Source: an uncultured Fusobacteriaceae bacterium (GTDB lineage: Bacteria > Fusobacteriota > Fusobacteriia > Fusobacteriales > Fusobacteriaceae). Taken from it: a stretch of DNA of 64,000 nt. The DNA lies in contig CAMQWJ010000003.1 in the NCBI GenBank assembly GCA_947038515.1, forward strand, positions 62,001 through 126,000, written 5' to 3'. Shown piece by piece: positions 4,612 through 59,635 of this stretch. A program made the translations under genes and the position numbers. The notes below the pieces were generated by a model. It saw nothing but the letters and a program-made list of their open reading frames with translations, did not search any database and had not been told where the DNA came from. How positions within the stretch are numbered: position 1 is the stretch's first letter; each line of letters begins with the position of its first letter.

Positions 4612-6567
4612 TTAAAATTTATAAGAAAATCCTGCATTAATAAATTCTTTATCTCTTTTTCCAAAAGTTTTACCAAGATTGATATTAAAACCAATATTTT
4701 TATAGTTAATAGATGTTCCGATTTTTAACTCTGTACTGCTACCTTTTAAGTGGTCGCCAAGGGCTTGGAATTCACCGTTGAAATTTTCAAAAGACATTTG
4801 TCTATTTTTATCAATATTTCCTAATTCATAAAAATATTTACTGCTAGCATAAAAAGTTATATTATCGAATTTTTTTCCAACTTCAAGTCCAATACTAGGT
4901 TTAATAGAAGTATAGTCCTCTTTTCCAACGTTTAAATTAATAGCACCTGCTCCAGTTTCAGTAAAACTTTCTTGAGAGCTATATCCTGCATCTAGTCCAA
5001 TAGTAGGTTGGATGTATAGTGAGCTACCAAAAGTTTTAGACAATTCAGACTTTAAATTTATTGTGTAAGAATTAAAATCTGAATTAGCTTTTTTATCTAA
5101 AGAGTAAATATCACGTTCTGTTTTATGAAAATTATATTCTCCATTTAATCCAATTTTAAAATTCATTTCATTAATATCATAATATTTATACAGACCAGCA
5201 TGAATACTTTGAAGATTTCCATTACCTGAATAGTCATAGTTAATCTTATTGTAGCCATATCCAAATGTTCCGAATAAATTTTCTGAAAGTTTTGCAACTC
5301 CAATGAAACCAGTCATTTCACTTTTGTAACCTTCGATATCATATTTAGAAGTATTTTTAGTAATATCTCCAAGTACTGAGAAATTAACTTTTTCTTCCCC
5401 TAAATTTTCTATTAATTCAAGCTCTTTATTTGTAAATAGGTCGTTTGTTTCAAAAATCTGACGAGGAATATTTGAATAAATATTTCCTGATAAGTCATTT
5501 AAAGTTTTATTAATATTCTGGTTACTTTTAGTATTTTCAAAGATTTTATTAATAATATTTTTTTGATCTGTATCCAAAGTTAAAATTGCTTTTTTATCAA
5601 TATATTTATCAAAAATATTAGCAATTGAAACATAGTCTTTTTTTGCATATGTAGATAATGTACTATTATTACGAGTAAGGGTTGCATCTAACCCACCAGA
5701 AATATTAAGTGAAGAGTGAGCATCGTATAGTAAAGAACCTGAAGTAATATTATAGTTAGGTCCCATGGTAATATTTGTAGATTCAATTATATTAGATAAT
5801 AAATATTTATCTTGAAAATCTCCTTTAGCTAAGGTTGGATCAACTTTAATATTACCATCAATAGAAACAGAGTTAGCTTTTATTGTACCATAAGTACCAT
5901 CTTCTGAAGTTCCAACTACGTAAGAACTTAAGTTATCAGTTTTGATAGATAGAGGTTCAGAAGAACTTTTGATAGGATTATTAACTACTTCGATTGTTCC
6001 AACATTATGTAAATCAGATCCGAACATTAATAAGATATCAGCCCCCTCAGGATCAGGATGTGAAGCATCAATATAAATTCTTCCACTAGCAGTATTGTAT
6101 ATTTCAGAATGAATAGCTTTCATTGCATAACCTGCAATATTACCTACGTTTATAGTTCCGTGATTTATTATAGTACTTTCCCTTTGGGCAAGCATTCCAA
6201 TAGAGTGTTCACCAATAAGGTTAATAACTCCAGACTTTAAATTTATAGCTCTACTTCCATAGTCAGCGAGAATACCAATCATATCCTTCTCTAAAACATT
6301 AATAGTGCCACTGTTTGTTAAATCATCTTCATCAGTCCATAAAAGTGCCCAACCGCTGTCGGTATAATACCCTTCTGCAGGATCTACAGGATCTACAGGA
6401 GAAATGTCAGTTCCAGTTCCAGGGGTCATATCATTCGAAGTAACTCCAGCACCAGAACAACCTATAGTTGGAAGTAAAAATAATCCAATAACTAATATTT
6501 TTGCAAATCTAGAAGTGGTAATAACTGATTTTTCTTTTAGTAACTTTTTAAGTTTTTTAATGTTCAT
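4612..6567 (-). CDS. Autotransporter with lipoprotein-like signal
   Basis: A 651-residue type V secretion protein. The N-terminus has a long basic region, a hydrophobic stretch (about residues 22-36) and PTIGCSGAG, so Cys37 could be a lipidation site, although the -3/-1 residues are only a partial lipobox match. A short Pro/Asp linker leads to a passenger (about 65-370) of NSGTI, INHGTI and VGTIEV beta-helix modules. The C-terminal third (about 395-651) alternates amphipathic strands and ends in GFSYKF with a terminal Phe, as expected of an outer-membrane barrel recognised by BAM. AGGGGG precedes the ATG. It is divergent from secA and is not a close relative of the two larger autotransporters at 50-59 kb. 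The ligand or target is unknown. Confidence 0.85.
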   Translation of the reverse strand: MNIKKLKKLLKEKSVITTSRFAKILVIGLFLLPTIGCSGAGVTSNDMTPGTGTDISPVDPVDPAEGYYTDSGWALLWTDEDDLTNSGTINVLEKDMIGILADYGSRAINLKSGVINLIGEHSIGMLAQRESTIINHGTINVGNIAGYAMKAIHSEIYNTASGRIYIDASHPDPEGADILLMFGSDLHNVGTIEVVNNPIKSSSEPLSIKTDNLSSYVVGTSEDGTYGTIKANSVSIDGNIKVDPTLAKGDFQDKYLLSNIIESTNITMGPNYNITSGSLLYDAHSSLNISGGLDATLTRNNSTLSTYAKKDYVSIANIFDKYIDKKAILTLDTDQKNIINKIFENTKSNQNINKTLNDLSGNIYSNIPRQIFETNDLFTNKELELIENLGEEKVNFSVLGDITKNTSKYDIEGYKSEMTGFIGVAKLSENLFGTFGYGYNKINYDYSGNGNLQSIHAGLYKYYDINEMNFKIGLNGEYNFHKTERDIYSLDKKANSDFNSYTINLKSELSKTFGSSLYIQPTIGLDAGYSSQESFTETGAGAINLNVGKEDYTSIKPSIGLEVGKKFDNITFYASSKYFYELGNIDKNRQMSFENFNGEFQALGDHLKGSSTELKIGTSINYKNIGFNINLGKTFGKRDKEFINAGFSYKF

Positions 6568-46146: not shown

Positions 46147-46155
46147 GGAGTGTAT

Positions 46156-47598
46156 GTGAAAAATATATTACTTGGCATTACAGGTGGAATCTCTGCTTAC
46201 AAGAGTGCCAATATCGTATCTCAATTAAAGAAAAAAGGATATAGTGTTAAAGTTATAATGACTAAAAATGCCACAAAAATAATAACTCCTCTCACTTTTG
46301 AGACACTTTCTAGAAATAAAGTATATGTAGATATGTGGGATGAGAGCAAAGGATATGAGGTGGAACATATTTCTTTAGCTGAATGGGCAGATTTAGTTTT
46401 GGTAGCTCCTACAACATATAATGTTATTGGAAAGATAGCAAATGGAATTGCAGACGATATGTTAACAACTGTAATTTCTGCAACTAAAGTTCCTGTTTTT
46501 TTTGCATTAGCAATGAATGAAAATATGTATAATAATCCTATTTTATCAGATAATGTGGACAAATTAAAAGGATATGGGTACCGTTTTATTGAAGCTGATG
46601 AAGGGTTTCTTGCTTGCAATACAAATGGAAAAGGGCGGTTAAAAAAAGAGGAAGAAATAATAGAAATAATAGAGGAATATTTTATAAAAAAAGATTATCC
46701 ACAAGTATTACAAGGGAAAACAGTAGTTATTACTGCTGGTCCAACAGAAGAACCTCTTGATCCTGTTCGGTTTATAACAAATTTATCAAGCGGGAAAATG
46801 GGATACTCTCTAGCAGAGGCCTGTGCAAAATTAGGAGCTCAAGTTACTCTGATTTCAGGTCCTACAAAATTAGAGCCCCCTATGGGTCTTAAAAAATTTA
46901 TTTCTGTTAGAACAGCTCTTCAAATGGAGAAGGAAACATTAAAATATTATGAAAATATAGATATAGCAATTGCATGTGCTGCTGTGGGAGATTATAGACC
47001 CAAAATATATTACAAGGAAAAAATAAAAAAATCTGATTCGGATTTTAGTGTTGAACTAATACGAAATCCAGATATTTTATATCAAATGGGGTTATTAAAG
47101 AAAAATCAATTTCTTATGGGTTTTGCTGCAGAAACAGAAAATATTTTAGAAAATGCGACATTAAAATTAAATAAGAAAAATTTAGATGTAATAGTAGCGA
47201 ATGATGCTTCAAATATGGGAAATGGAAACAATACGGTTACTCTTGTAGAGAAAAATGGAAAAATAACTCCATTGAAAAGAGAAAAAAAATCTGAATTGGC
47301 ATATACAATTTTATTAAAATTATTTTCAAAAGTAACTATGGTATCTTTGATGGGAATATTAATTCTTACAGGTTGTTCGTCTATTATAAGTAATAGTACA
47401 GGAAAAGAAAAATATTCTGATTTGGAAAAAAAATATTCTGTTATTTTAAAAAAACCAAGATTAAAAAGTAAAGAAATAGACTCTTTAAAAAATAAGTATA
47501 TAAAATTAAATTCGAGATTAGAGAGAAATGAAGAAAATAAAAAATTAAAAAAAGAAATTTTAAAAAAAGTTGTTATTTTAGAAGATTTATCAAGTTAA
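46156..47598 (+). CDS. coaBC: CoaBC (PPC synthetase/decarboxylase) with in-frame lipoprotein-like tail
   Basis: Two steps of coenzyme A synthesis: 4'-phosphopantothenate to phosphopantothenoylcysteine (CoaB) and its decarboxylation (CoaC). About 480 residues from GTG 46156 (5 nt after AAGGAG). The flavoprotein CoaC part (about 1-175) shows GITGGISAYKSANI, HISLAEWADLVLVAPTTYN and ACNTNGKGRL; CoaB (about 185-390) has TAGPTEEPLDPVRFITNLSSGKMG and the CTP-binding lysine near IKKSDSDFSVELIRNPDIL. The usual end is passed: the frame runs on into VSLMGILILTGCSS, a lipobox-like segment, and about 70 Lys/Glu-rich residues. A cytosolic enzyme ending in a lipoprotein-like segment is unexpected; a lost stop, frameshift or nested gene are alternatives. 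Confidence 0.88.
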   Translation: MKNILLGITGGISAYKSANIVSQLKKKGYSVKVIMTKNATKIITPLTFETLSRNKVYVDMWDESKGYEVEHISLAEWADLVLVAPTTYNVIGKIANGIADDMLTTVISATKVPVFFALAMNENMYNNPILSDNVDKLKGYGYRFIEADEGFLACNTNGKGRLKKEEEIIEIIEEYFIKKDYPQVLQGKTVVITAGPTEEPLDPVRFITNLSSGKMGYSLAEACAKLGAQVTLISGPTKLEPPMGLKKFISVRTALQMEKETLKYYENIDIAIACAAVGDYRPKIYYKEKIKKSDSDFSVELIRNPDILYQMGLLKKNQFLMGFAAETENILENATLKLNKKNLDVIVANDASNMGNGNNTVTLVEKNGKITPLKREKKSELAYTILLKLFSKVTMVSLMGILILTGCSSIISNSTGKEKYSDLEKKYSVILKKPRLKSKEIDSLKNKYIKLNSRLERNEENKKLKKEILKKVVILEDLSS

Positions 47599-48599: not shown

Positions 48600-48630
48600 T
48601 ATCAGTAAATAATAATAAAAGGATGTGTAT

Positions 48631-50439
48631 ATGAAAATCAAAAATATAGCAATAATTGCTCACGTTGACCATGGTAAGACAACTTTAGTTGACTGTCTTT
48701 TAAGACAAGCTGGTGCTTTTGGAGAACATGAGTTAGAAAGTGTTTCTGAAAGAATAATGGATTCAAATGATATAGAAAAAGAAAGAGGTATTACAATTTT
48801 TTCTAAAAATGCTTCTGTTCAATATAATGGTGTGAAAATTAATATTGTTGATACTCCAGGCCATGCTGATTTTGGTGGAGAAGTTCAAAGAATAATGAAA
48901 ATGGTTGACTGTGTTGTTTTACTTGTAGATGCATTTGAAGGAACAATGCCACAGACAAAATATGTTCTGAAAAAAGCTTTAGAGCAGGGGCATAGACCAA
49001 TAGTAGTTGTTAATAAGATTGATAGACCTGGTGCAAGACCTGAAGAGGTTCTTTATATGGTTTATGACTTATTCTTAGATTTAAATGCTAATGAATTCCA
49101 ATTAGAGTTCCCGGTAGTATATGCTTCTGGAAAAGGTGGATTTGCTAAATTAGAATTAGAAGATACTAGTGATAATATGATTCCTTTATTTGATACTATA
49201 TTAAAACATGTTCCAGAACCTGAAGGGGATAGTTCAGCAGAGTTACAGTTCTTAGTATCAAATATAGAGCATGATAACTATGTAGGAAAATTGGCAGTAG
49301 GTAGACTTTATAATGGAAAAATCAAGAAAAATCAAGAAATTATATTGATAAAGAGAGATGGAAAGCAAGTTAAAGGTAAAGTTTCTGTACTTTATGGATA
49401 TCAAGGATTGAAAAGAGTTGAAATTGAAGAAGCATTCTGTGGAGATATCATATCAGTAGCTGGAATAGCAGATGCAGATATAGGAGAAACAATAGCAGAT
49501 GTATTAAATCCAGTAGCTCTACCATTAATAGATATTGATGAGCCTACTCTTGCAATGACATTTATTGTTAATGATTCACCATTTGCAGGAAAAGATGGAA
49601 AAAAGATTACATCAAGAAATATATGGGATAGATTACAAAATGAATTAAAAGGTAATGTAAGTATGAGAGTAGAAGCAACAGATTCTCCAGACTCATTTAT
49701 AGTTAAAGGAAGAGGGGAACTTCAACTTTCTATATTACTAGAAAATATGAGAAGAGAGGGACATGAAGTTCAAGTTTCAAAACCAAGAGTTCTTTTTAAA
49801 ACTATTGATGGAGTACTATTTGAGCCTGTGGAACTTGCTGTTGTTGATGTTGATGATAACTTTACAGGTATAGTTATTGAAAAATTGGGTGTTAGAAAGG
49901 GAGAAATGACTTCTATGATTCCTGGTACAGATGGATATACTCGTTTAGAGTTTAAAGTACCTTCAAGAGGTCTTATTGGATTTAGAAATGAATTCCTTAC
50001 TGATACAAAAGGAACTGGAATTTTGAATCACTCTTTCTATGATTTTGAAATTCATAAAGGAGCAATTGCTTCAAAAAATAAAGGAGCTCTAATAGCTTTA
50101 GAAGCAGGAAAAACAAATGCTTATGCACTTGGTGGATTACAAGATAGAGGAACATTATTTGTAGATGTGGGAGTAGAAGTATATCCTGGAATGATAGTTG
50201 GGGAACATAACAGAGAGAATGATCTTGTTGTTAATGTAACAAAAACAAAAAAACTTACAAATATGAGAGCTTCTGGAACTGATGATACAGTTAAATTAGC
50301 AACTCCAAAGAATATGACTTTAGAGCAAGCATTAGACTATATTCAAGATGATGAATTAGTAGAAATTACTCCTAATTTTATCAGAATTAGAAAAAGAATT
50401 TTAAATGAAAGTGACAGAAAAAAATCTGAAAAGAAATAA
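48631..50439 (+). CDS. typA: Ribosome-associated GTPase TypA/BipA
   Basis: An EF-G-like translational GTPase involved in ribosome assembly and stress adaptation. About 602 residues, with G1 AHVDHGKTT, G2 ERGITIFSKN, G3 DTPGHADFGGE and G4 NKIDRPGARPEEV, then domain II, and the BipA-specific C-terminus including SRGLIGFRNEFLTDTKGTG. ATG 48631 lies 7 nt after AAAAGGA; GTG 48625 overlaps the SD region. It has its own promoter and a strong terminator, so it is probably monocistronic. Confidence 0.97.
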   Translation: MKIKNIAIIAHVDHGKTTLVDCLLRQAGAFGEHELESVSERIMDSNDIEKERGITIFSKNASVQYNGVKINIVDTPGHADFGGEVQRIMKMVDCVVLLVDAFEGTMPQTKYVLKKALEQGHRPIVVVNKIDRPGARPEEVLYMVYDLFLDLNANEFQLEFPVVYASGKGGFAKLELEDTSDNMIPLFDTILKHVPEPEGDSSAELQFLVSNIEHDNYVGKLAVGRLYNGKIKKNQEIILIKRDGKQVKGKVSVLYGYQGLKRVEIEEAFCGDIISVAGIADADIGETIADVLNPVALPLIDIDEPTLAMTFIVNDSPFAGKDGKKITSRNIWDRLQNELKGNVSMRVEATDSPDSFIVKGRGELQLSILLENMRREGHEVQVSKPRVLFKTIDGVLFEPVELAVVDVDDNFTGIVIEKLGVRKGEMTSMIPGTDGYTRLEFKVPSRGLIGFRNEFLTDTKGTGILNHSFYDFEIHKGAIASKNKGALIALEAGKTNAYALGGLQDRGTLFVDVGVEVYPGMIVGEHNRENDLVVNVTKTKKLTNMRASGTDDTVKLATPKNMTLEQALDYIQDDELVEITPNFIRIRKRILNESDRKKSEKK

Positions 50440-50575: not shown

Positions 50576-51928
50576 TCCTTAGAAACTAAAACTTATACCA
50601 GCACTAGTCTTCCAACCTTTATTATGTGCTCCCACTTCATATCCACTATCAGCAAAGATAGAGACTCCTGAATTAGATATATATTTAGCTCCTAATAAAA
50701 CATCTCCATAACTATTGTTTCCTTTATAACCTTTAATAGTTGCATTACCATCAAGAACAGAAAGTTTACCATTTAAATCTTTATATGGTTTTCCAAGTTC
50801 TAAGTATCCAGTTGCTCCTATTTCTAAATTTAACTTTCCTTTTTTAGTATAGATATCTTTTCCTAAAGCCACTCCTAATCCAGTCTCTATAGATAAAGAA
50901 TTACTTTTGTCAATATCTAAAGCATATTTACCACTTTCAGAAATATTCCCTTGCATTAAGTAAGTAAAGTTCAATTCTGCTTTAGGTTTTAAATAAGTAT
51001 TATTTCCTGAAGTAGAGAAATATTTTTTAGACATACTATTATGTAATCCTAAATAGTAATTTTCACTATTAGATTCCATTTGTTCATGTAGAGAAGTGAA
51101 AGCAAGAGTTCTTTCAGTTTCCATAGTTGTCATACCAGCAAAGAACATACTTGTATATTCAACATTAGATGCACTCTTATATTTCATATAAGTGTTTGCT
51201 TGATACTGCATATCATTTCTTGTTCCATTTTCATCATAATCGATATCAAGTTTACCTACAGTAGCAACAACACCTACTTTCATATTTTTAGTGAGTTGTT
51301 TTTCCCCACCAAAATATACTCCACTTAAATCTAAATTATATTTTTGTAATGTATCATCATTATCTTCTTCTAATTGACTATAGTTTGCTCCACCAATAAA
51401 GATTGCATCACCAGGAGCTAAAACTACATCACTTTCTAAAACATTTTTTCTTATTACTCTGTTTGAAGATTTAATCATATCAAATGTTTGTTTTCCTGTT
51501 ACAGAATAGAACTCTCCATATGTTTGATCAACTGCATTTCCTAAAGTTTCAGAACTAGTAATAAGTTTTAAGGCTCCGTACAAATCTTCTTTTGCACTGG
51601 TAGCTTTTGATGTAGAAGAAGAAGTTGTATTTTGTTCTTTAACATAATTATTTTCTAATATAGCTGCTAATTCTTGATTATCTAAAATTTCTGCAAAGTT
51701 TTTTCTTTCCATTTCAACACCATAATAACCATATTTATCTTTGCCTGTTAAATTGGCATCAAACATTGTAGAATTAGAAATAATATTTCCTTCTATTTTA
51801 TCAGTTTTAAACATCTTATAAGTATCATATTTATCATCAAATCCACTCATTGTAAGGGCTCCACTTGCATAAATATCCCCTTTTATAGATTCAGCTTCAA
51901 TTGTACCACCTGAACCCATAACTAATTT
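50576..51928 (-). repeat. 1353-bp near-identical block, copy 1 (autotransporter 3' end)
   Basis: Matches 54095-55447 without indels. By eye I see about five differences, four within the first ~75 bp next to the stop codon and one near 51890; the ~1.2 kb between appears identical. It encodes the last ~449 residues of both autotransporters: the passenger end and the whole barrel. Confidence 0.93.
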
Positions 51929-53842
51929 ACCTCCTGATGTCTGTTCTGAAGTATTAAAAACACCATTAGTTGACTGAATTGTTCCACTGTTTTCTATAAT
52001 CACTCCACCCTTCTCTACAAAAACTGCTTTATTACTTGCATCTCCAAGAACAATCACACTACCTTTTTCAGTTTTAATAGTTGAGTCTGTTCCTGTAGCA
52101 TACATTCCATATTGATTTTTTCCTAAAAGTTTAATTGTTCCCCTGTTAATGATCTGTCCACCGTTAGTAGCTCCCATTCCATAATTGGGTTTTGATGGAG
52201 TTCCATCTTTTGTTACATTGATAGTTGCACCTACTTCATTAACCGCTGTTGACAATGCTCTAGTAGCCGTCATACCATAAAGACCTCCATTTTCAATAGT
52301 TCCAAGATTTATTATAGTTCCACCATGATTAGCATACATTCCATGGTCTTTAGTGTTAGAGATTGTTCCATGATTTATTGCCTTCGCTTTACTTAAAAAA
52401 GCTTCCATTCCATAACTGCCAGTATTTGAAATTGTTCCATAATTTAATGCATCTGTGTCATTAGCCCTCATTCCATGGTCTTTAGTGTTAGAAATTGTTC
52501 CTTTTTTCTCATTGATAATTACTCCACTAATATGAGCAAACATTCCATTAATACCCTTATTCGAAATTATCCCATAGTTGATAGCTTGTGCTCCAAGACC
52601 ACTAGCTATCATTCCATTTTGATTTTTATTCGAAACTGTTCCGTAATTGTATGCTTTTGACTCATTTCCATTAGTAAACATCCCACTCTCGCCATCATTA
52701 GAAATTATACCCTTTTCTCCATTGGTTATTACTCCACCATTCTTAGCATACATTCCATGTTGACCTGTATTTGAAATAGTTCCATTATTGATTGCTACTG
52801 AATTAACTCCGTCAGAGTTCATTCCAAAGCTACTTGTATTAATAATTATACCCTTTTCTCCATTGGTTATTACTCCACCATTCTCAGCATCCATTCCAAG
52901 TACGCCTGTATTTGAGATAGTTCCATTATTGATTGCTACTGAATTAACTCCATCAGAACTCATTCCACCGTTACCTGTATTTGAGATAGTTCCATTATTA
53001 AGTACTCGTGACCCAGCTCCAAGAGAATACATTCCACGATCATTTGTGTTTGAAATTATAGCACCCTTGTCATTAATCGCTAGTGCACCGTTTTGAGCAT
53101 ACATTCCATGGAATCCATTATTTGTAATCTTTCTATTATTGATTACTGTCGATTCAGCTCCAGAAGCATACATTCCCCAATGACCATTATTTGTAATCTC
53201 TCCATAATTATATGCTGAGGTATGACTTCCTACAGCACTCATTCCATAATAACCTGTGTTCGTGATTGTACCCTTATTTATAATAGTTCCATGAGTTGCG
53301 AGCATTCCAAATCCTGAACCTGTAATCGTTCCATTATTTATTCCTGTACTTACATCTAGAGTAATTCCTTCAGGAGCATTTACTATCATTCCATAATTAT
53401 TTCCTGATAAAGTTATTATGTGATTGTTGATTATTTCGCCACCTTTTGTCATAAGACCATCTGAACCAGTTGTTAATATATCTGCTCCAGTTGTATAACT
53501 TATTCCTTCTATGGCAACTCCATTTTCCCATATAATTATAGGAGTTGAAGGTTCCAATGGGATTAGTGGTTCAGTTGGTATTGAAGGTACTGTTGTACCC
53601 TCTACTTCTATTTTATTTTTATTTCTACTGTTTTTAGTTGTACCTAAAAAATAATTAAAAAAGAAAAGTCCTGTCTTGTTTGATATAACTTCCTCTTCAA
53701 CTTTAGTTCCGACTTCTTCTGGAAGAGTGATTGTACTACCATAGCCTACACTACTCATCAATAGCATAATTAAAGTTCCTGATGTAATTGATATTGATTT
53801 ACAATATTTTCTTCTAATCCAATCTTTTAATGTTTTTTTCAT
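50579..53842 (-). CDS. Type V autotransporter adhesin-like protein (1087 residues)
   Basis: Surface protein with an unusually long signal region (MKKTLKDWIRRKY then a hydrophobic stretch to about residue 35), a conserved FFNYFL-xxx-K-x-R-x-K segment (63-80), a proline linker, and a passenger (about 115-640) of ~22-residue beta-helix rungs such as INNGTISNTG and GVITNGEKGI. The last ~449 residues contain the barrel, ending ISFSF with terminal Phe. Passenger rungs with N-x-G-x-I are typical of large fusobacterial autotransporters; adhesion is inferred, not shown. It lies downstream of a longer paralogue with a nearly identical 3' end. TATAAT-like sequence at 53890-53885 (minus) may be its promoter. 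Confidence 0.9.
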   Translation of the reverse strand: MKKTLKDWIRRKYCKSISITSGTLIMLLMSSVGYGSTITLPEEVGTKVEEEVISNKTGLFFFNYFLGTTKNSRNKNKIEVEGTTVPSIPTEPLIPLEPSTPIIIWENGVAIEGISYTTGADILTTGSDGLMTKGGEIINNHIITLSGNNYGMIVNAPEGITLDVSTGINNGTITGSGFGMLATHGTIINKGTITNTGYYGMSAVGSHTSAYNYGEITNNGHWGMYASGAESTVINNRKITNNGFHGMYAQNGALAINDKGAIISNTNDRGMYSLGAGSRVLNNGTISNTGNGGMSSDGVNSVAINNGTISNTGVLGMDAENGGVITNGEKGIIINTSSFGMNSDGVNSVAINNGTISNTGQHGMYAKNGGVITNGEKGIISNDGESGMFTNGNESKAYNYGTVSNKNQNGMIASGLGAQAINYGIISNKGINGMFAHISGVIINEKKGTISNTKDHGMRANDTDALNYGTISNTGSYGMEAFLSKAKAINHGTISNTKDHGMYANHGGTIINLGTIENGGLYGMTATRALSTAVNEVGATINVTKDGTPSKPNYGMGATNGGQIINRGTIKLLGKNQYGMYATGTDSTIKTEKGSVIVLGDASNKAVFVEKGGVIIENSGTIQSTNGVFNTSEQTSGGKLVMGSGGTIEAESIKGDIYASGALTMSGFDDKYDTYKMFKTDKIEGNIISNSTMFDANLTGKDKYGYYGVEMERKNFAEILDNQELAAILENNYVKEQNTTSSSTSKATSAKEDLYGALKLITSSETLGNAVDQTYGEFYSVTGKQTFDMIKSSNRVIRKNVLESDVVLAPGDAIFIGGANYSQLEEDNDDTLQKYNLDLSGVYFGGEKQLTKNMKVGVVATVGKLDIDYDENGTRNDMQYQANTYMKYKSASNVEYTSMFFAGMTTMETERTLAFTSLHEQMESNSENYYLGLHNSMSKKYFSTSGNNTYLKPKAELNFTYLMQGNISESGKYALDIDKSNSLSIETGLGVALGKDIYTKKGKLNLEIGATGYLELGKPYKDLNGKLSVLDGNATIKGYKGNNSYGDVLLGAKYISNSGVSIFADSGYEVGAHNKGWKTSAGISFSF

Positions 53843-54002
53843 TTAAATCCCCCTATAAAATTATTAATATTATTGATATTTCTCATTATACACCATTAAT
53901 ACAAGCGTGACTTCCGTTAGTGAACTGTTTCTGAACAATGATCTCTTTTAGCCTTTATATTACTCAATAAATAGATAAAAAAAATGAATAATAAATAAAA
54001 AA

Positions 54003-54030
54003 GGTGTCAGTACTTTACAGTACCAACACC
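54003..54030 (-). terminator. Terminator of the 1527-residue autotransporter
   Basis: On the minus strand GGTGTTGGTACT, GTAA, AGTACTGACACC forms a 12-bp stem with an internal T-G/T-G mismatch, followed by TTTTTT. It separates the two autotransporter genes, so each is its own transcription unit. Confidence 0.85.
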
Positions 54031-54094
54031 AGAAAATATAAAAAAATATAAGGAGAATTGTTTTCATATTTTTAATTTAGTTATTTTGCTTATA

Positions 54095-55447
54095 TCCTTA
54101 GAAACTAAAGCTTACACCAGCACTAGTTTTCCAACCTTTATTATGTGCTCCCACTTCATATCCACCATCAGCAAAGATAGAGACTCCTGAATTAGATATA
54201 TATTTAGCTCCTAATAAAACATCTCCATAACTATTGTTTCCTTTATAACCTTTAATAGTTGCATTACCATCAAGAACAGAAAGTTTACCATTTAAATCTT
54301 TATATGGTTTTCCAAGTTCTAAGTATCCAGTTGCTCCTATTTCTAAATTTAACTTTCCTTTTTTAGTATAGATATCTTTTCCTAAAGCCACTCCTAATCC
54401 AGTCTCTATAGATAAAGAATTACTTTTGTCAATATCTAAAGCATATTTACCACTTTCAGAAATATTCCCTTGCATTAAGTAAGTAAAGTTCAATTCTGCT
54501 TTAGGTTTTAAATAAGTATTATTTCCTGAAGTAGAGAAATATTTTTTAGACATACTATTATGTAATCCTAAATAGTAATTTTCACTATTAGATTCCATTT
54601 GTTCATGTAGAGAAGTGAAAGCAAGAGTTCTTTCAGTTTCCATAGTTGTCATACCAGCAAAGAACATACTTGTATATTCAACATTAGATGCACTCTTATA
54701 TTTCATATAAGTGTTTGCTTGATACTGCATATCATTTCTTGTTCCATTTTCATCATAATCGATATCAAGTTTACCTACAGTAGCAACAACACCTACTTTC
54801 ATATTTTTAGTGAGTTGTTTTTCCCCACCAAAATATACTCCACTTAAATCTAAATTATATTTTTGTAATGTATCATCATTATCTTCTTCTAATTGACTAT
54901 AGTTTGCTCCACCAATAAAGATTGCATCACCAGGAGCTAAAACTACATCACTTTCTAAAACATTTTTTCTTATTACTCTGTTTGAAGATTTAATCATATC
55001 AAATGTTTGTTTTCCTGTTACAGAATAGAACTCTCCATATGTTTGATCAACTGCATTTCCTAAAGTTTCAGAACTAGTAATAAGTTTTAAGGCTCCGTAC
55101 AAATCTTCTTTTGCACTGGTAGCTTTTGATGTAGAAGAAGAAGTTGTATTTTGTTCTTTAACATAATTATTTTCTAATATAGCTGCTAATTCTTGATTAT
55201 CTAAAATTTCTGCAAAGTTTTTTCTTTCCATTTCAACACCATAATAACCATATTTATCTTTGCCTGTTAAATTGGCATCAAACATTGTAGAATTAGAAAT
55301 AATATTTCCTTCTATTTTATCAGTTTTAAACATCTTATAAGTATCATATTTATCATCAAATCCACTCATTGTAAGGGCTCCACTTGCATAAATATCCCCT
55401 TTTATAGATTCCGCTTCAATTGTACCACCTGAACCCATAACTAATTT
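54095..55447 (-). repeat. 1353-bp near-identical block, copy 2 (autotransporter 3' end)
   Basis: Partner of 50576-51928; constant offset of 3519 bp throughout. Homology stops abruptly just upstream of the codons for GGKLVMGSGGT, where the passengers diverge. Confidence 0.93.
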
Positions 55448-58400
55448 TCCACCCTCAACAGAGGTGGCTGTATTAAATTCACCTTCAGATGTGATTGCTC
55501 CTGTGTTATAAAGAGTAATATCTGTTGCTCCATCTATCAAATGAACTGCAACATTATCTGGTCCAGAACCAATATTAATTGTACCTTCATTTTTTAGTGT
55601 TGAACCAGTACCAGCAGCATACATTCCATATTGATAATTTCCTAAAAGATTTATTGTTCCTGTATTAGTAATAGTTGCCCCATCAAAAGCTCCCATTCCA
55701 TAATTAAATTCTGATTGAGTTCCATCTTTTGTAACATTGATAGTACCATTATTTGTTGCTGTTGCCAATGATCCAATAGCCTGCATACCATATAATCCTT
55801 TATTATCAATAGTTCCATTATTGATAGCTGTAGTTGACTTGAACAAGTTATCGATTCTAGAATCTACCTTCATTCCATAATTATCTTTATTGGCTATAAT
55901 TGCTTTTTCTTCATTTAATATAGTTCCACCAGAATTTGCTTGCATTCCATAAGAACCTTTATTAGTGATAGTACCTTTATTGGTTCCACTTGAATTTTCT
56001 CCATCTGCATACATTCCATAACTACCATTATTTTTTATTGATGCACCAGTGTCGTTTACTACTATACCAAGATATCCATATATTCCGTAATCAGATTTGT
56101 TAGCAATTATTCCTTTATTAAATGCAGTTGTAGATTCACCGTATGCTAGCATTCCAACAGTACCCTTATTTTTTATCAAACCATCAATGTCATTTGTTAT
56201 AGATAATCCCTTACTATTAACCATCCCAAAATCACCTCTATTAGCGATGGTTCCACTATTTATTGCAATAGTATTTTCTCCTTCTATATACATTCCATCA
56301 TTTCCAATATTTCTTATAAGAGCCCCTTTTTCATTTTTTATAATTGCTCCATTACGTGCATACATTCCAAAATTACCTTTGTTACTAATAAGTCCTTTAT
56401 TTACTCCTTTAGAATCGGTATCAAGTGCATACATTCCAATATGTCCTTTATTTTTGATTATTCCATTTGTATCATTAATTAGGAGTCCACCATTGTTTAC
56501 GTGTGTACCATAATCACTTTTATTTCTAATGATTCCATTATTTATCCCAGTTGCCCCTTCTCCAATTACTAACATTCCAATTTGTCCCTTATTAGCAATA
56601 ATTCCTTTGTTGATTCCATTTGATAAATTACCACTAATACTCATCCCATAGTGACCTTTATTTTTTATTGAGGCCTTAAGTTCATTTGTTATTGTTCCAG
56701 AATTAATAGTAGCAAGACCATAGCTACCATTATTTAAAATTTTGCCTTTGTTAGTTCCCGTAGATCCCTCATCACTAATTTTTATTCCATAGTTACCAAT
56801 ATTTTTGATTATTCCATCAACTTCATTAGTAATAGATCCAGAATTAGTAGCGAACATCCCAAAATCAAATATATTAGCGATAGTCCCCTTGTTGATACCG
56901 GTTGAACCTATACCATCAACACTGATACCAAAATTTCCATTGTTTTGAATAAGAGCCCCAGTATCATTAGTAGCAGTTCCAGAATTGGTGACAGAAATAC
57001 CATAATCTTTTAGATTCATGATATTTCCTTTATTAATTCCAGTGGAATCTGTCCCATGTACTGATATTCCAAAATTCCCATTATTCTCAATAAAAGCACC
57101 TACATCGTTAATAGTGGTCCCAGAATTAGTGACTGCAATTCCATGGTCATTTAAATTAGCGATATTCCCTTTGTTGATTCCAGTGGAACCAATCCCATCA
57201 ACACTCATACCAAATTTTCCATTATTTTTAATAAAAGCCCCGTTATCATTGATAATATTACCCATATTTATAGCTGTAAAACCATAATCTTTAAAATTAG
57301 CGATAATCCCTTTGTTGATTCCAGTGGAGTTATTTCCGTCAACTTTCATTCCAAAATCCCCATTATTTTGAATAAAGCCTTTCACATCATTAGTAATATT
57401 TCCAGAATTAATAGCTGTAAACCCATGGTTATTTAAATTAGCAATAATCCCTTTGTTAATCCCAGTAGAATTATTCCCATCAACGCTCATACCAAAGTTT
57501 CCACTGTTTTTAATGTAACCACCAACATCATTAGTGACAGTAGCAGAGTCAGTAGCCTTAATTCCATGATCTACTAAATTAGCAATAGTTCCTTTATTAA
57601 TCCCAGTAGAATTATTTCCGTTAACACTCATACCAAAGTTTCCACTGTTTTTAATAGAACCGCCAACATCATTAGTGACAGTAGCAGAATTAGTAGCATT
57701 AATTCCATGGTCTACTAAATTAGCAATAGTTCCTTTATTAATTCCAGTAGAATTATTTCCATCAACACTCATACCAAAGTTCCCACTGTTTTTAATAGAA
57801 CCGCCAATTTCATTAGTAATAGTTCCGGAGTTATGTGTATACATTCCATGGTCATTTGTATTTCTAATGATTCCTTTATTGATCCCAATGGAGTCTATAC
57901 CATTTACACGAATTCCACTAGTACCTGTATTTTTTATTGAACCGTTTATGTCATTAACTATAGTCCCTCCATTATGTGCTATCATTCCACCAGTACCCTT
58001 ATTTTCAATAGCTCCTCTATTTATAGCAATTGCCTTAATACCAGGGGCTTTAGTTAATGAACCAACTGCAATCATTCCATAATCTCCGCTATTACTAACT
58101 GTTCCATTGCTTTCATTGATAATAACACCGTGGTTTGCTAACATTCCACTTCCATGACCTATTATCACTCCATTGTTTACTCCTGTACTCACATCGACAG
58201 TATCACCTTCTGGAGGGTTAACTATAATACCAATATTATTACTAGATAAAGTTATGGTATGGTTGTTTATGATCTCTCCACCTTTTGTCATTAAACCAGA
58301 ATCTATTCCATTTGTAACTACGTGATTATCTGTTGTATGTGTTAAACCTGATATTTCTATACCATTTTTCCAAATAATTATTTTTTCTGTAGGTGGTACT

Positions 58401-58681
58401 ACTGGATCGGTTGGTCCAATGGGTTGTATTTCTATTTGTCTTTTACTTCTATCATTTTTATTTGAACTTAAAAAATAGTTGAAAAATAATAAAGCATTTT
58501 TTTGGGGGATACTTCTCTCTTGGATTTCTTTTGTAACTATAATCTCTTCAGTTTCATTAGGGTTAATAATGGTATTTCCAAAACCTAGGTTGTTCATCAA
58601 TAACATTATTAATGTTCCCATAGTTATTGTCATTGCTTTATGATATCTTCTTCGCATCCAATCTTTTAACGTTTTTTCCAT
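54098..58681 (-). CDS. Type V autotransporter adhesin-like protein (1527 residues)
   Basis: Longer paralogue of the neighbouring gene. Signal region MEKTLKDWMRRRYHK plus hydrophobic stretch to about residue 36; the shared FFNYFL-xxx-K-x-R-x-K segment at 67-80; then a passenger (about 130-1075) built of N-x-G-x-I beta-helix rungs. Residues 266-688 form nine consecutive 47-residue units that begin GINKG (see repeat entry). The final ~449 residues are almost identical to the neighbour and end VSFSF. AGGAGG precedes the ATG. A surface adhesin or shield function is inferred from architecture. The gene is AT-rich like its surroundings, with no sign of foreign origin. Confidence 0.9.
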   Translation of the reverse strand: MEKTLKDWMRRRYHKAMTITMGTLIMLLMNNLGFGNTIINPNETEEIIVTKEIQERSIPQKNALLFFNYFLSSNKNDRSKRQIEIQPIGPTDPVVPPTEKIIIWKNGIEISGLTHTTDNHVVTNGIDSGLMTKGGEIINNHTITLSSNNIGIIVNPPEGDTVDVSTGVNNGVIIGHGSGMLANHGVIINESNGTVSNSGDYGMIAVGSLTKAPGIKAIAINRGAIENKGTGGMIAHNGGTIVNDINGSIKNTGTSGIRVNGIDSIGINKGIIRNTNDHGMYTHNSGTITNEIGGSIKNSGNFGMSVDGNNSTGINKGTIANLVDHGINATNSATVTNDVGGSIKNSGNFGMSVNGNNSTGINKGTIANLVDHGIKATDSATVTNDVGGYIKNSGNFGMSVDGNNSTGINKGIIANLNNHGFTAINSGNITNDVKGFIQNNGDFGMKVDGNNSTGINKGIIANFKDYGFTAINMGNIINDNGAFIKNNGKFGMSVDGIGSTGINKGNIANLNDHGIAVTNSGTTINDVGAFIENNGNFGISVHGTDSTGINKGNIMNLKDYGISVTNSGTATNDTGALIQNNGNFGISVDGIGSTGINKGTIANIFDFGMFATNSGSITNEVDGIIKNIGNYGIKISDEGSTGTNKGKILNNGSYGLATINSGTITNELKASIKNKGHYGMSISGNLSNGINKGIIANKGQIGMLVIGEGATGINNGIIRNKSDYGTHVNNGGLLINDTNGIIKNKGHIGMYALDTDSKGVNKGLISNKGNFGMYARNGAIIKNEKGALIRNIGNDGMYIEGENTIAINSGTIANRGDFGMVNSKGLSITNDIDGLIKNKGTVGMLAYGESTTAFNKGIIANKSDYGIYGYLGIVVNDTGASIKNNGSYGMYADGENSSGTNKGTITNKGSYGMQANSGGTILNEEKAIIANKDNYGMKVDSRIDNLFKSTTAINNGTIDNKGLYGMQAIGSLATATNNGTINVTKDGTQSEFNYGMGAFDGATITNTGTINLLGNYQYGMYAAGTGSTLKNEGTINIGSGPDNVAVHLIDGATDITLYNTGAITSEGEFNTATSVEGGKLVMGSGGTIEAESIKGDIYASGALTMSGFDDKYDTYKMFKTDKIEGNIISNSTMFDANLTGKDKYGYYGVEMERKNFAEILDNQELAAILENNYVKEQNTTSSSTSKATSAKEDLYGALKLITSSETLGNAVDQTYGEFYSVTGKQTFDMIKSSNRVIRKNVLESDVVLAPGDAIFIGGANYSQLEEDNDDTLQKYNLDLSGVYFGGEKQLTKNMKVGVVATVGKLDIDYDENGTRNDMQYQANTYMKYKSASNVEYTSMFFAGMTTMETERTLAFTSLHEQMESNSENYYLGLHNSMSKKYFSTSGNNTYLKPKAELNFTYLMQGNISESGKYALDIDKSNSLSIETGLGVALGKDIYTKKGKLNLEIGATGYLELGKPYKDLNGKLSVLDGNATIKGYKGNNSYGDVLLGAKYISNSGVSIFADGGYEVGAHNKGWKTSAGVSFSF
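56618..57886 (-). repeat. Nine tandem 141-bp (47-residue) passenger repeats
   Basis: Units start at residues 266, 313, 360, 407, 454, 501, 548, 595 and 642 of the 1527-residue autotransporter. Consensus: GINKG-x-IAN, then DHG, TNSGT-x-TND, I-KN-x-GNFGMSV, DG-x-x-ST. Units 2 and 3 (residues 313-406) are nearly identical in DNA and look recently duplicated; later units have drifted. Confidence 0.9.
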
Positions 58682-58815
58682 TCTTACTTCCTCCTATAAA
58701 AGTTATCAATTTTTAAAGGTGATGGGAGAATAACACTGTTAGTTGAGTAAAAATCACTTTTAATTTGATCGATAATTTTATATTCGGTAAATTATTTTAA
58801 ATCCTTTTATAAGAA

Positions 58816-58863
58816 TATAAAAAAATGGTGAAGAAAATTATAAATAAATTTTCTTCACCATTT
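58816..58863 (-). terminator. Terminator of gltS-murI, overlapping the murI 3' end
   Basis: A 17-bp perfect stem (58823-58839 with 58847-58863) followed on the minus strand by TTTTTTATATT. One whole arm lies inside the last codons of murI and the stop codon lies in the stem-loop. Confidence 0.9.
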
Positions 58864-59635
58864 GTATATTCATATTTAATATTTTTTCTCCAATAGTTTT
58901 AAAAATATCAGATTCACCACTTACAAAAAATTCTATTTTTCCGTTTTCATGAGAAGGATTTAAAAGATTTTTTTCTTTAAGAATTTTTACAATTTCTTGA
59001 GAACTTCCAAAAGCTGGATCTATAATTGTTCCTAAAAAATATTTTTTGATATCTTCTAATATAATAGGATAATGAGTACATCCTAATATTAAAGTATCAA
59101 TATCTTTAGGTAAAAGAGAAATATAATGTTCTAAAAGAATAAATCGATTTTCGTTATTTGTCCATCCTGTCTCAATCATAGTACAAAATTCTTTACAAGC
59201 AACTTGGGCAACAGTAACATTTTTACTTAACTGAGAAAGCTCTTTTTGATAGCCATTCATAGCAATAGTTAATGGCGTTGCAATTACACCAATTTTAGAA
59301 TTTTGAGTGGAGGCTATTGCAGTAATAGCCCCAGAATGAATGACTCCTACTACAGGAATTTCAGGAAAAGTCTTTTTTATACTTTCTAAAGAAGCAACGG
59401 TAGCAGTATTACAAGCAATCATAATTAACTTACAATTTTTTTTAGCAAGAAAATTAGCAATTTTAAGACATAAAGCCTCAATTTCACATGTCTGCTTATC
59501 ACCATAAGGTGAATTATTGTTATCTGCAAAATAAATTAAATGTTCTTTTGGAAGAAGTTTTTTTATTTGCTTTAATACTGTAAGACCACCAACTCCTGAA
59601 TCAAAAATACCAATACATGATTTATTTGATATCAT
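58838..59635 (-). CDS. murI: Glutamate racemase
   Basis: Makes D-glutamate for peptidoglycan from L-glutamate. The 265-residue enzyme has GIFDSGVGGLTVL at the N-terminus, FADNNNSPYGDK, the first catalytic cysteine in ACNTATVAS (about residue 75), and the second in LGCTHYPI (about 187). AAGGAG precedes the ATG. It lies 56 bp downstream of gltS on the same strand with no terminator between, so glutamate uptake and racemisation are probably co-expressed. Confidence 0.96.
   Translation of the reverse strand: MISNKSCIGIFDSGVGGLTVLKQIKKLLPKEHLIYFADNNNSPYGDKQTCEIEALCLKIANFLAKKNCKLIMIACNTATVASLESIKKTFPEIPVVGVIHSGAITAIASTQNSKIGVIATPLTIAMNGYQKELSQLSKNVTVAQVACKEFCTMIETGWTNNENRFILLEHYISLLPKDIDTLILGCTHYPIILEDIKKYFLGTIIDPAFGSSQEIVKILKEKNLLNPSHENGKIEFFVSGESDIFKTIGEKILNMNIQMVKKIYL

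What the first reader, a model, noticed from the sequence alone, without database searches (positions are those of the whole stretch)
50576..55447. Barrel ends of two autotransporters are homogenised over 1.35 kb
Seen: 1353 bp at constant offset with about five differences, nearly all at the very 3' edge, and an abrupt end where passengers diverge. The two N-termini are clearly paralogous but much more different. Inference: gene conversion keeps the export domain uniform while passengers diversify, making a two-locus system in which crossover in the block can swap passengers.
Basis: partly seen in the sequence, partly recalled or inferred. Interest (0 to 1): 0.66.

Follow-up and report, generated by a model that had tools for sequence, protein, structure and literature searches.

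The report
Shared barrel ends of surface adhesins
Two neighbouring genes for surface proteins have different outer parts but nearly letter-for-letter the same export end, most likely because the cell copies that end from one gene to another; the same copying marks other adhesin genes in this genome and its relatives, and a similar process was already known from Helicobacter pylori.

Summary
50576-51928 and 54095-55447 (1353 bp, offset 3519) differ at 5 sites, with 1245 bp identical. The genes are two tandem type Va autotransporters. Synonymous divergence is 0.011 inside the block and 0.75-1.15 elsewhere in the same genes, so protein constraint cannot explain the identity. Gene conversion of the translocation unit, i.e. 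concerted evolution, is the best explanation.

The finding is wider than reported. In this genome four giant autotransporters on four contigs also share homogenised 3' ends: 407 identical bp in all four, and a mosaic of tracts among the three complete ones (permutation p about 1e-4). Single-contig genomes of three other genera in the same order show the same pattern. Barrels of the giants are 95-100% identical within a genome but 37-45% between genera.

"Crossover swaps passengers" is wrong here. The blocks are direct tandem repeats at gene 3' ends, so crossover deletes gene B or duplicates it. Caveat: all five differences lie within 72 bp of a block edge in a 23-contig draft, so interior differences could be hidden by repeat collapse; the block and its boundary stand.

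Closest precedent: Helicobacter pylori babA/babB and homA/homB 3' ends. Known mechanism, new family and phylum; modest interest.

The parts
50579..53842 (-). Autotransporter gene B, 1087 aa: signal/N-terminal region, repetitive passenger, C-terminal barrel
   Evidence: ORF; PF03797 at residues 819-1065, E 3.8e-24
54098..58681 (-). Autotransporter gene A, 1527 aa, tandem upstream paralogue of B in the same orientation
   Evidence: ORF; PF03797 at residues 1259-1506, E 5.3e-24
50576..51928 (-). Homogenised block, copy in B: last 449 codons, stop codon and 3 bp
   Evidence: 5 mismatches in 1353, 1245 exact; dS 0.011
54095..55447 (-). Homogenised block, copy in A
50648..51388 (-). Pfam autotransporter beta-barrel within the B block; the block extends about 180 aa upstream of it
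   Evidence: converted from residues 819-1065
54164..54907 (-). Pfam autotransporter beta-barrel within the A block
   Evidence: converted from residues 1259-1506
51929..53285 (-). B passenger, not homogenised, built of about 23/24-aa repeats (69-bp units)
55448..58043 (-). A passenger, not homogenised, repeats with 141-bp period (10 copies of a 300-nt reference at 60-71%)
53276..53843 (-). B N-terminal region, paralogous to A at 74-75% DNA in its best stretches
   Evidence: families D6 and D8
58115..58682 (-). A N-terminal region, paralogous to B
   Evidence: families D6 and D8
54003..54030 (-). Terminator-like imperfect palindrome followed by a T-run (minus strand) between A and B; suggests separate transcription units
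   Evidence: read from sequence; not tested

Best explanation
A and B are tandem type Va autotransporter genes that arose by an old duplication. Their 3' ends, which encode the translocation unit (end of the passenger stalk, linker and barrel), have been overwritten by homologous, non-reciprocal recombination (gene conversion) recently, and probably repeatedly. The tract stops at the passenger junction because upstream sequence (about 60-68% identical) is presumably too different to pair. Selection probably tolerates or favours exchange of the interchangeable export module and not of the passengers. The same process acts on dispersed giant autotransporters of the genome and on autotransporters of related genera. 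Shown: the tract, its edges, synonymous identity, mosaic structure in the giants, and the within- versus between-genome contrast. Inferred: RecA-type gene conversion as the molecular route, repetition over time for this pair, and the selective reason.
For: dS 0.011 in the block against 0.75-1.15 outside in the same pair. Abrupt edges. Giant autotransporters on contigs C1, C3, C5 and C14: block dS 0.07-0.11 against 0.68-1.02 upstream for the three complete ones, 407 bp identical at all four loci, and mosaic site patterns (-986 to -712 groups L046 with L048; -709 to -516 groups mostly L046 with L047), 19 switches observed against 31.8 expected, permutation p about 1e-4. Another genus (G018, one contig): L136/L137 have dS 0.00 over 340 codons and dS 1.09 upstream. 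Giants' barrels are 95-100% identical within a genome and 37-45% between genera, with long between-genus branches (about 1.9 subs/site in the barrel, about 1.15 in the passenger), so the barrel is not slow-evolving. Many pairs with homogenised ends of about 1.0-1.5 kb in G018, G027, G059.
Against: All five differences of the window pair lie within 72 bp of a block edge (p about 1.4e-5 if uniform), which conversion-tract edges explain but so does collapse of the interior in a draft assembly. No second strain was available, so repetition and direction of conversion for this pair are not shown. Passenger trees also group mostly by genome, so passenger lineages older than the split of the genera were not demonstrated.
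Confidence: 0.85

Rival explanations
1. A single recent event: B (or A) received its 3' end once, by one recombination or by fusion of a passenger to a duplicated barrel end, with no continuing concerted evolution.
For: One event suffices for this pair taken alone: uniform near-identity. Full-length recent autotransporter duplications do occur in relatives, e.g. L168/L169 100% and L092/L093 99% over at least 4.4 kb.
Against: Mosaic tracts and graded identities among the giants of the same genome require several events there. A fusion to an unrelated passenger is unlikely because the N-terminal and pre-block parts of A and B are themselves paralogous at dS 0.75-1.15.
Confidence: 0.25
2. Assembly artefact: the blocks are similar but not identical, and a short-read assembler placed one consensus in both copies; real differences survive only near the unique flanks.
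For: The genome is a 23-contig draft, contig C14 ends inside a giant barrel repeat, and all five differences lie within 72 bp of an edge.
Against: Differences of 1 in about 100 bp and 4 in about 100 bp next to the two edges already contrast with about 40% outside. Copies would have to be very similar to be collapsed. The giants keep dozens of resolved interior differences, and single-contig genomes show the same pattern. It would lower the identity figure, not remove the homogenisation.
Confidence: 0.2
3. Purifying selection alone: the export domain is conserved because the protein must work, and no DNA exchange occurs.
For: Such a case exists: the homologous pair L140/L141 in genus g12 (G071) has a conserved block ending at the same junction, with dN 0.11 but dS 0.96, close to the dS of 1.06 upstream.
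Against: In the window pair synonymous sites are identical too (3 of 274 differ). The giants' barrels differ by 55-63% between genera and the A/B barrel by about 53% from G071's, so the domain is not under extreme constraint.
Confidence: 0.02
4. The blocks are a recombination device: crossover within them exchanges or fuses passengers to vary the surface.
For: More than 1.2 kb of perfect direct repeat 3.5 kb apart is ample homology, and in-frame products are intact. Copy number of type Va adhesins varies between Fusobacterium strains (PMC10995627).
Against: In direct tandem orientation with the block at the 3' end, crossover removes B or duplicates it; passengers are not swapped. Nothing here shows programmed or frequent switching.
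Confidence: 0.08

Closest known systems
Helicobacter pylori babA/babB and homA/homB 3' segments (concerted evolution by intragenomic gene conversion; PMC3960876 and PMC2795765)
   Same: Paralogous outer-membrane adhesin genes; 3' end homogenised within a genome while the 5' or middle part diverges; attributed to intragenomic recombination.
   Different: Hop/Hom proteins, not type Va autotransporters; different phylum; shown there with many strains and chimeric genes, here with one genome per species.
Fusobacterium nucleatum type Va adhesins fap2, radD, cmpA: recombination-derived mosaicism between lineages (PMC10995627)
   Same: Same class of giant autotransporters in the same group; autotransporter loci appear as recombination hotspots, the 3' end included.
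   Different: Exchange between subspecies at orthologous loci; homogenisation among paralogues within one genome is not reported in the passages read.
Escherichia coli Ag43 paralogues (PMC10058404)
   Same: Autotransporter family with one conserved translocator group and diverse, shuffled passengers; several copies per genome.
   Different: Described as domain shuffling and translocator conservation at protein level; no synonymous-site test of gene conversion in the passages read.
Neisseria meningitidis tpsA/tpsC 3' end exchange (PMC3848433)
   Same: Recombination replaces the 3' part of a type V secretion gene with material from related cassettes.
   Different: Two-partner secretion; there the 3' end is the part exchanged for different versions, whereas here the 3' end is the uniform part.

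Membership tests
Type Va (classical) autotransporter | C-terminal autotransporter beta-barrel domain | tested here: met
   PF03797, E 3.8e-24 and 5.3e-24, 86 bits against a cut-off of 26
Type Va (classical) autotransporter | C-terminal aromatic residue of the last strand | tested here: met
   both proteins end in SFSF
Type Va (classical) autotransporter | N-terminal signal peptide | tested here: inconclusive
   both begin with a basic stretch followed by a hydrophobic run (TLIMLLM...), read by eye; no predictor was run
Type Va (classical) autotransporter | beta-helical repetitive passenger | tested here: inconclusive
   23/24-aa repeats; a low-quality two-sequence model gives short strands at pLDDT about 70-79 for the passenger end only
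Concerted evolution by gene conversion (as in H. pylori bab/hom) | paralogues more alike within a genome than to homologues elsewhere, at synonymous sites, in one segment only | tested here: met
Concerted evolution by gene conversion (as in H. pylori bab/hom) | mosaic tracts inconsistent with one tree | tested here: met
   for the giant family of the genome, p about 1e-4; not testable for a two-copy pair
Concerted evolution by gene conversion (as in H. pylori bab/hom) | within-strain clustering across several strains of one species | not testable with these tools
   one genome per species held; genome contigs returned no close relative
Concerted evolution by gene conversion (as in H. pylori bab/hom) | RecA-dependent intragenomic recombination | not testable with these tools
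   needs an experiment

The most novel reading that the evidence does not exclude
Across the Fusobacteriota a large family of adhesin autotransporters shares a small pool of genome-specific export modules, continuously homogenised by gene conversion, so that new passengers can be gained, lost or expanded on a standard 3' end, and the homology tracts also drive copy-number change of adhesins within a strain.
Probability: 0.3. Interest if true: 0.6.

Novelty: new member of a known kind. Interest (0 to 1): 0.45.

Why it matters
Fusobacterial adhesins of this class decide what the cell binds. If their export ends are exchanged between genes, orthology assignments and trees based on the barrel domain will be misleading, short-read assemblies will break or collapse there, and adhesin copy number can change by recombination between the shared ends. 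It extends a mechanism known from Helicobacter pylori adhesins to another phylum and to very large autotransporters, and it can be tested with existing long-read strain collections.

Tried and rejected
Naming the organism: genome-contig scans with the barrel and with MurI found no close relative, probably because near-own records are left out. Plasmid records with the nearest barrels are from Fusobacterium, Cetobacterium and Sebaldella, which supports Fusobacteriota only. Structure of the block: the model from a two-sequence alignment was poor (mean pLDDT 38, barrel not formed) and was not used. Passenger lineages shared across genera as proof of old paralogy: rejected, because passenger trees group mostly by genome; only columns 900-1500 place G018's L136 with the G000 giants, at 95/96 support. 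The G071 pair first looked like an independent homogenised pair with the same boundary, but its block dS is saturated, so it shows selection only and serves as a control. No solved structure matched the block by sequence. Neither protein hit any NCBIfam model.

Full report
WHAT IS THERE. The window lies on contig C3 of a 1.78-Mb draft genome in 23 contigs. No name was available. The nearest named plasmid-record homologues of its autotransporters are in Cetobacterium, Fusobacterium and Sebaldella, so I take it to be a member of the Fusobacteriota (inference). Between typA (48625-50439, +) and murI (58838-59635, -) lie two tandem minus-strand genes: A (54098-58681, 1527 aa) and B (50579-53842, 1087 aa) (the names typA and murI are mine from the sequences). 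Both carry the autotransporter barrel PF03797 at the C-terminus. In the genus mate in which the region could be followed (G001), typA and murI are separated by other genes and no homologue of A or B, so the pair is not a fixed feature of the locus.

THE OBSERVATION. The last 1353 bp of the two genes match at constant offset 3519 with five differences; 1245 bp in a row are identical. The block spans the last 449 codons, the stop codon and 3 bp. Upstream the identity drops within a few bases. Synonymous divergence (Nei-Gojobori, Jukes-Cantor) is 0.011 in the block, 0.75 in the 104 codons just before it, 1.12 in the middle and 1.15 in the N-terminal 204 codons. The N-termini are paralogous (59% amino-acid identity).

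WHY IT IS NOT CONSTRAINT. Synonymous sites are identical, and the same domain differs by about 53% in amino acids from its nearest homologues in genus g12. In that genus a homologous pair (L140/L141) gives a natural control: its block is conserved over the same length with the same junction peptide, but its dS (0.96) is close to that of the upstream region (1.06). Selection can thus produce the domain boundary, but not the synonymous identity seen in the window.

IT IS NOT A TWO-LOCUS SYSTEM. The genome has 14 autotransporter barrels, 13 of them over the Pfam cut-off. A second family, giants of about 3400-3540 aa on contigs C1, C3 and C5 with a fourth, truncated by the contig end, on C14, shows the same thing at dispersed places: about 65-70% identity in the passengers jumps to 92-100% about 1.0 kb before the stop codon, and 407 bp are identical at all four loci. 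Informative sites among the three complete copies form runs with different partners (L046 with L048, then L046 with L047); 19 switches against 31.8 expected in shuffles, p about 1e-4. That is a direct sign of repeated tract exchange. Their 5' ends (about 450 bp) are also 91-93% identical between L048 and the other two.

OTHER GENOMES. I compared 3' ends of autotransporter genes within single-contig genomes G018 and G059 (family f1, genera g5 and g13) and G027 (family f4, genus g17), and in the two-contig genome G028 (family f4, genus g18). Pairs with a 3' block at or above 85% identity involve 16 of 24 genes in G018, 17 of 20 in G059, 9 of 17 in G027 and 2 of 15 in G028 (the 20 genes of G059 were chosen mostly for being giants, so that fraction is not a random sample). 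Many blocks start 0.97 to 1.5 kb before the stop codon with nothing alike upstream; some are longer, and some pairs are plain recent whole-gene duplicates. For giants in G018, L136 and L137 have dS 0.00 over 340 codons and 1.09 further upstream. Between the giants of G000 and G018 the barrels are 37-45% identical while within each genome they are 95-100%, and the between-genus branch is longer for the barrel (about 1.9) than for the passenger (about 1.15). A domain that evolves fast between genera but is uniform within each genome is the signature of concerted evolution. Passenger trees also group largely by genome, so I do not claim passenger lineages older than the genera.

MECHANISM. Homologous, non-reciprocal recombination between paralogous 3' ends is the simplest route. 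The tract ends where passengers have diverged to about 60-68% identity, which would be expected to stop pairing (inference). Whether conversion of the A/B pair happened once or repeatedly cannot be told from two copies.

CAVEAT. All five differences lie within 72 bp of an edge. Conversion edges would do this; so would a short-read assembler that placed one consensus in both copies. The draft status and the contig end inside a giant barrel show that repeats limited the assembly. The boundary, anchored in unique sequence on both sides, and the parallel cases in single-contig genomes make homogenisation safe, but the exact number of differences is not.

KNOWN OR NEW. The mechanism is known: in H. 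pylori the 3' segments of babA/babB and homA/homB show within-strain similarity attributed to gene conversion (PMC3960876, PMC2795765). For fusobacterial type Va adhesins, recombination between lineages and copy-number variation are published (PMC10995627). My searches of the open-access library found no report of barrel homogenisation among paralogues within one fusobacterial genome; subscription papers were not searchable, so this is weak evidence of novelty. I file it as a new member of a known kind.

Noticed in passing
G000 contigs C3:18-29 kb (L046), C1:162-172 kb (L047), C5:101-111 kb (L048), C14 end (L049): Four giant autotransporters at dispersed loci share homogenised 3' ends, and the three complete ones also share about 450 bp at the 5' end, at 91-93% in the pairs with L048.
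   Followed up: yes
G000:C14:46414-47051 (L049): The contig ends inside a giant-family barrel, so the assembly is limited by these repeats; the passenger of this fourth giant must lie on another contig end.
   Followed up: partly
window 46150-47598 (+): CoaBC (matches residues 4-389) is followed in frame, without a stop, by about 90 aa that begin like a lipoprotein signal (LMGILILTGCS); a fusion, an overlapping start of a second gene, or a lost stop.
   Followed up: partly
window about 4612-6567 (-): A third autotransporter in the window (651 aa) starts with a lipoprotein-like signal (GLFLLPTIGCSGA). Homologues of A/B in G071 and G024 (L140, L142) have similar LxxC motifs that A and B lack.
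   Followed up: no
window 55777-58043 and 52264-53285: The passengers differ in repeat organisation: a 141-bp period in A, 69-bp units in B; a loose repeat motif occurs 45 times in A and 19 times in B, so length seems to change by repeat expansion.
   Followed up: no
L136/L137 and L138/L139 (G018:C1:212-269 kb): Giant autotransporters in another genus stand as convergent pairs with 3' ends facing each other and (L136/L137) identical barrels at dS 0.00; crossover there would invert the short stretch between them.
   Followed up: partly
L140/L141 (G071 contig C3): A homologous pair with a conserved block ending at the same junction peptide but saturated synonymous sites: constraint without recent conversion, useful as a control.
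   Followed up: yes
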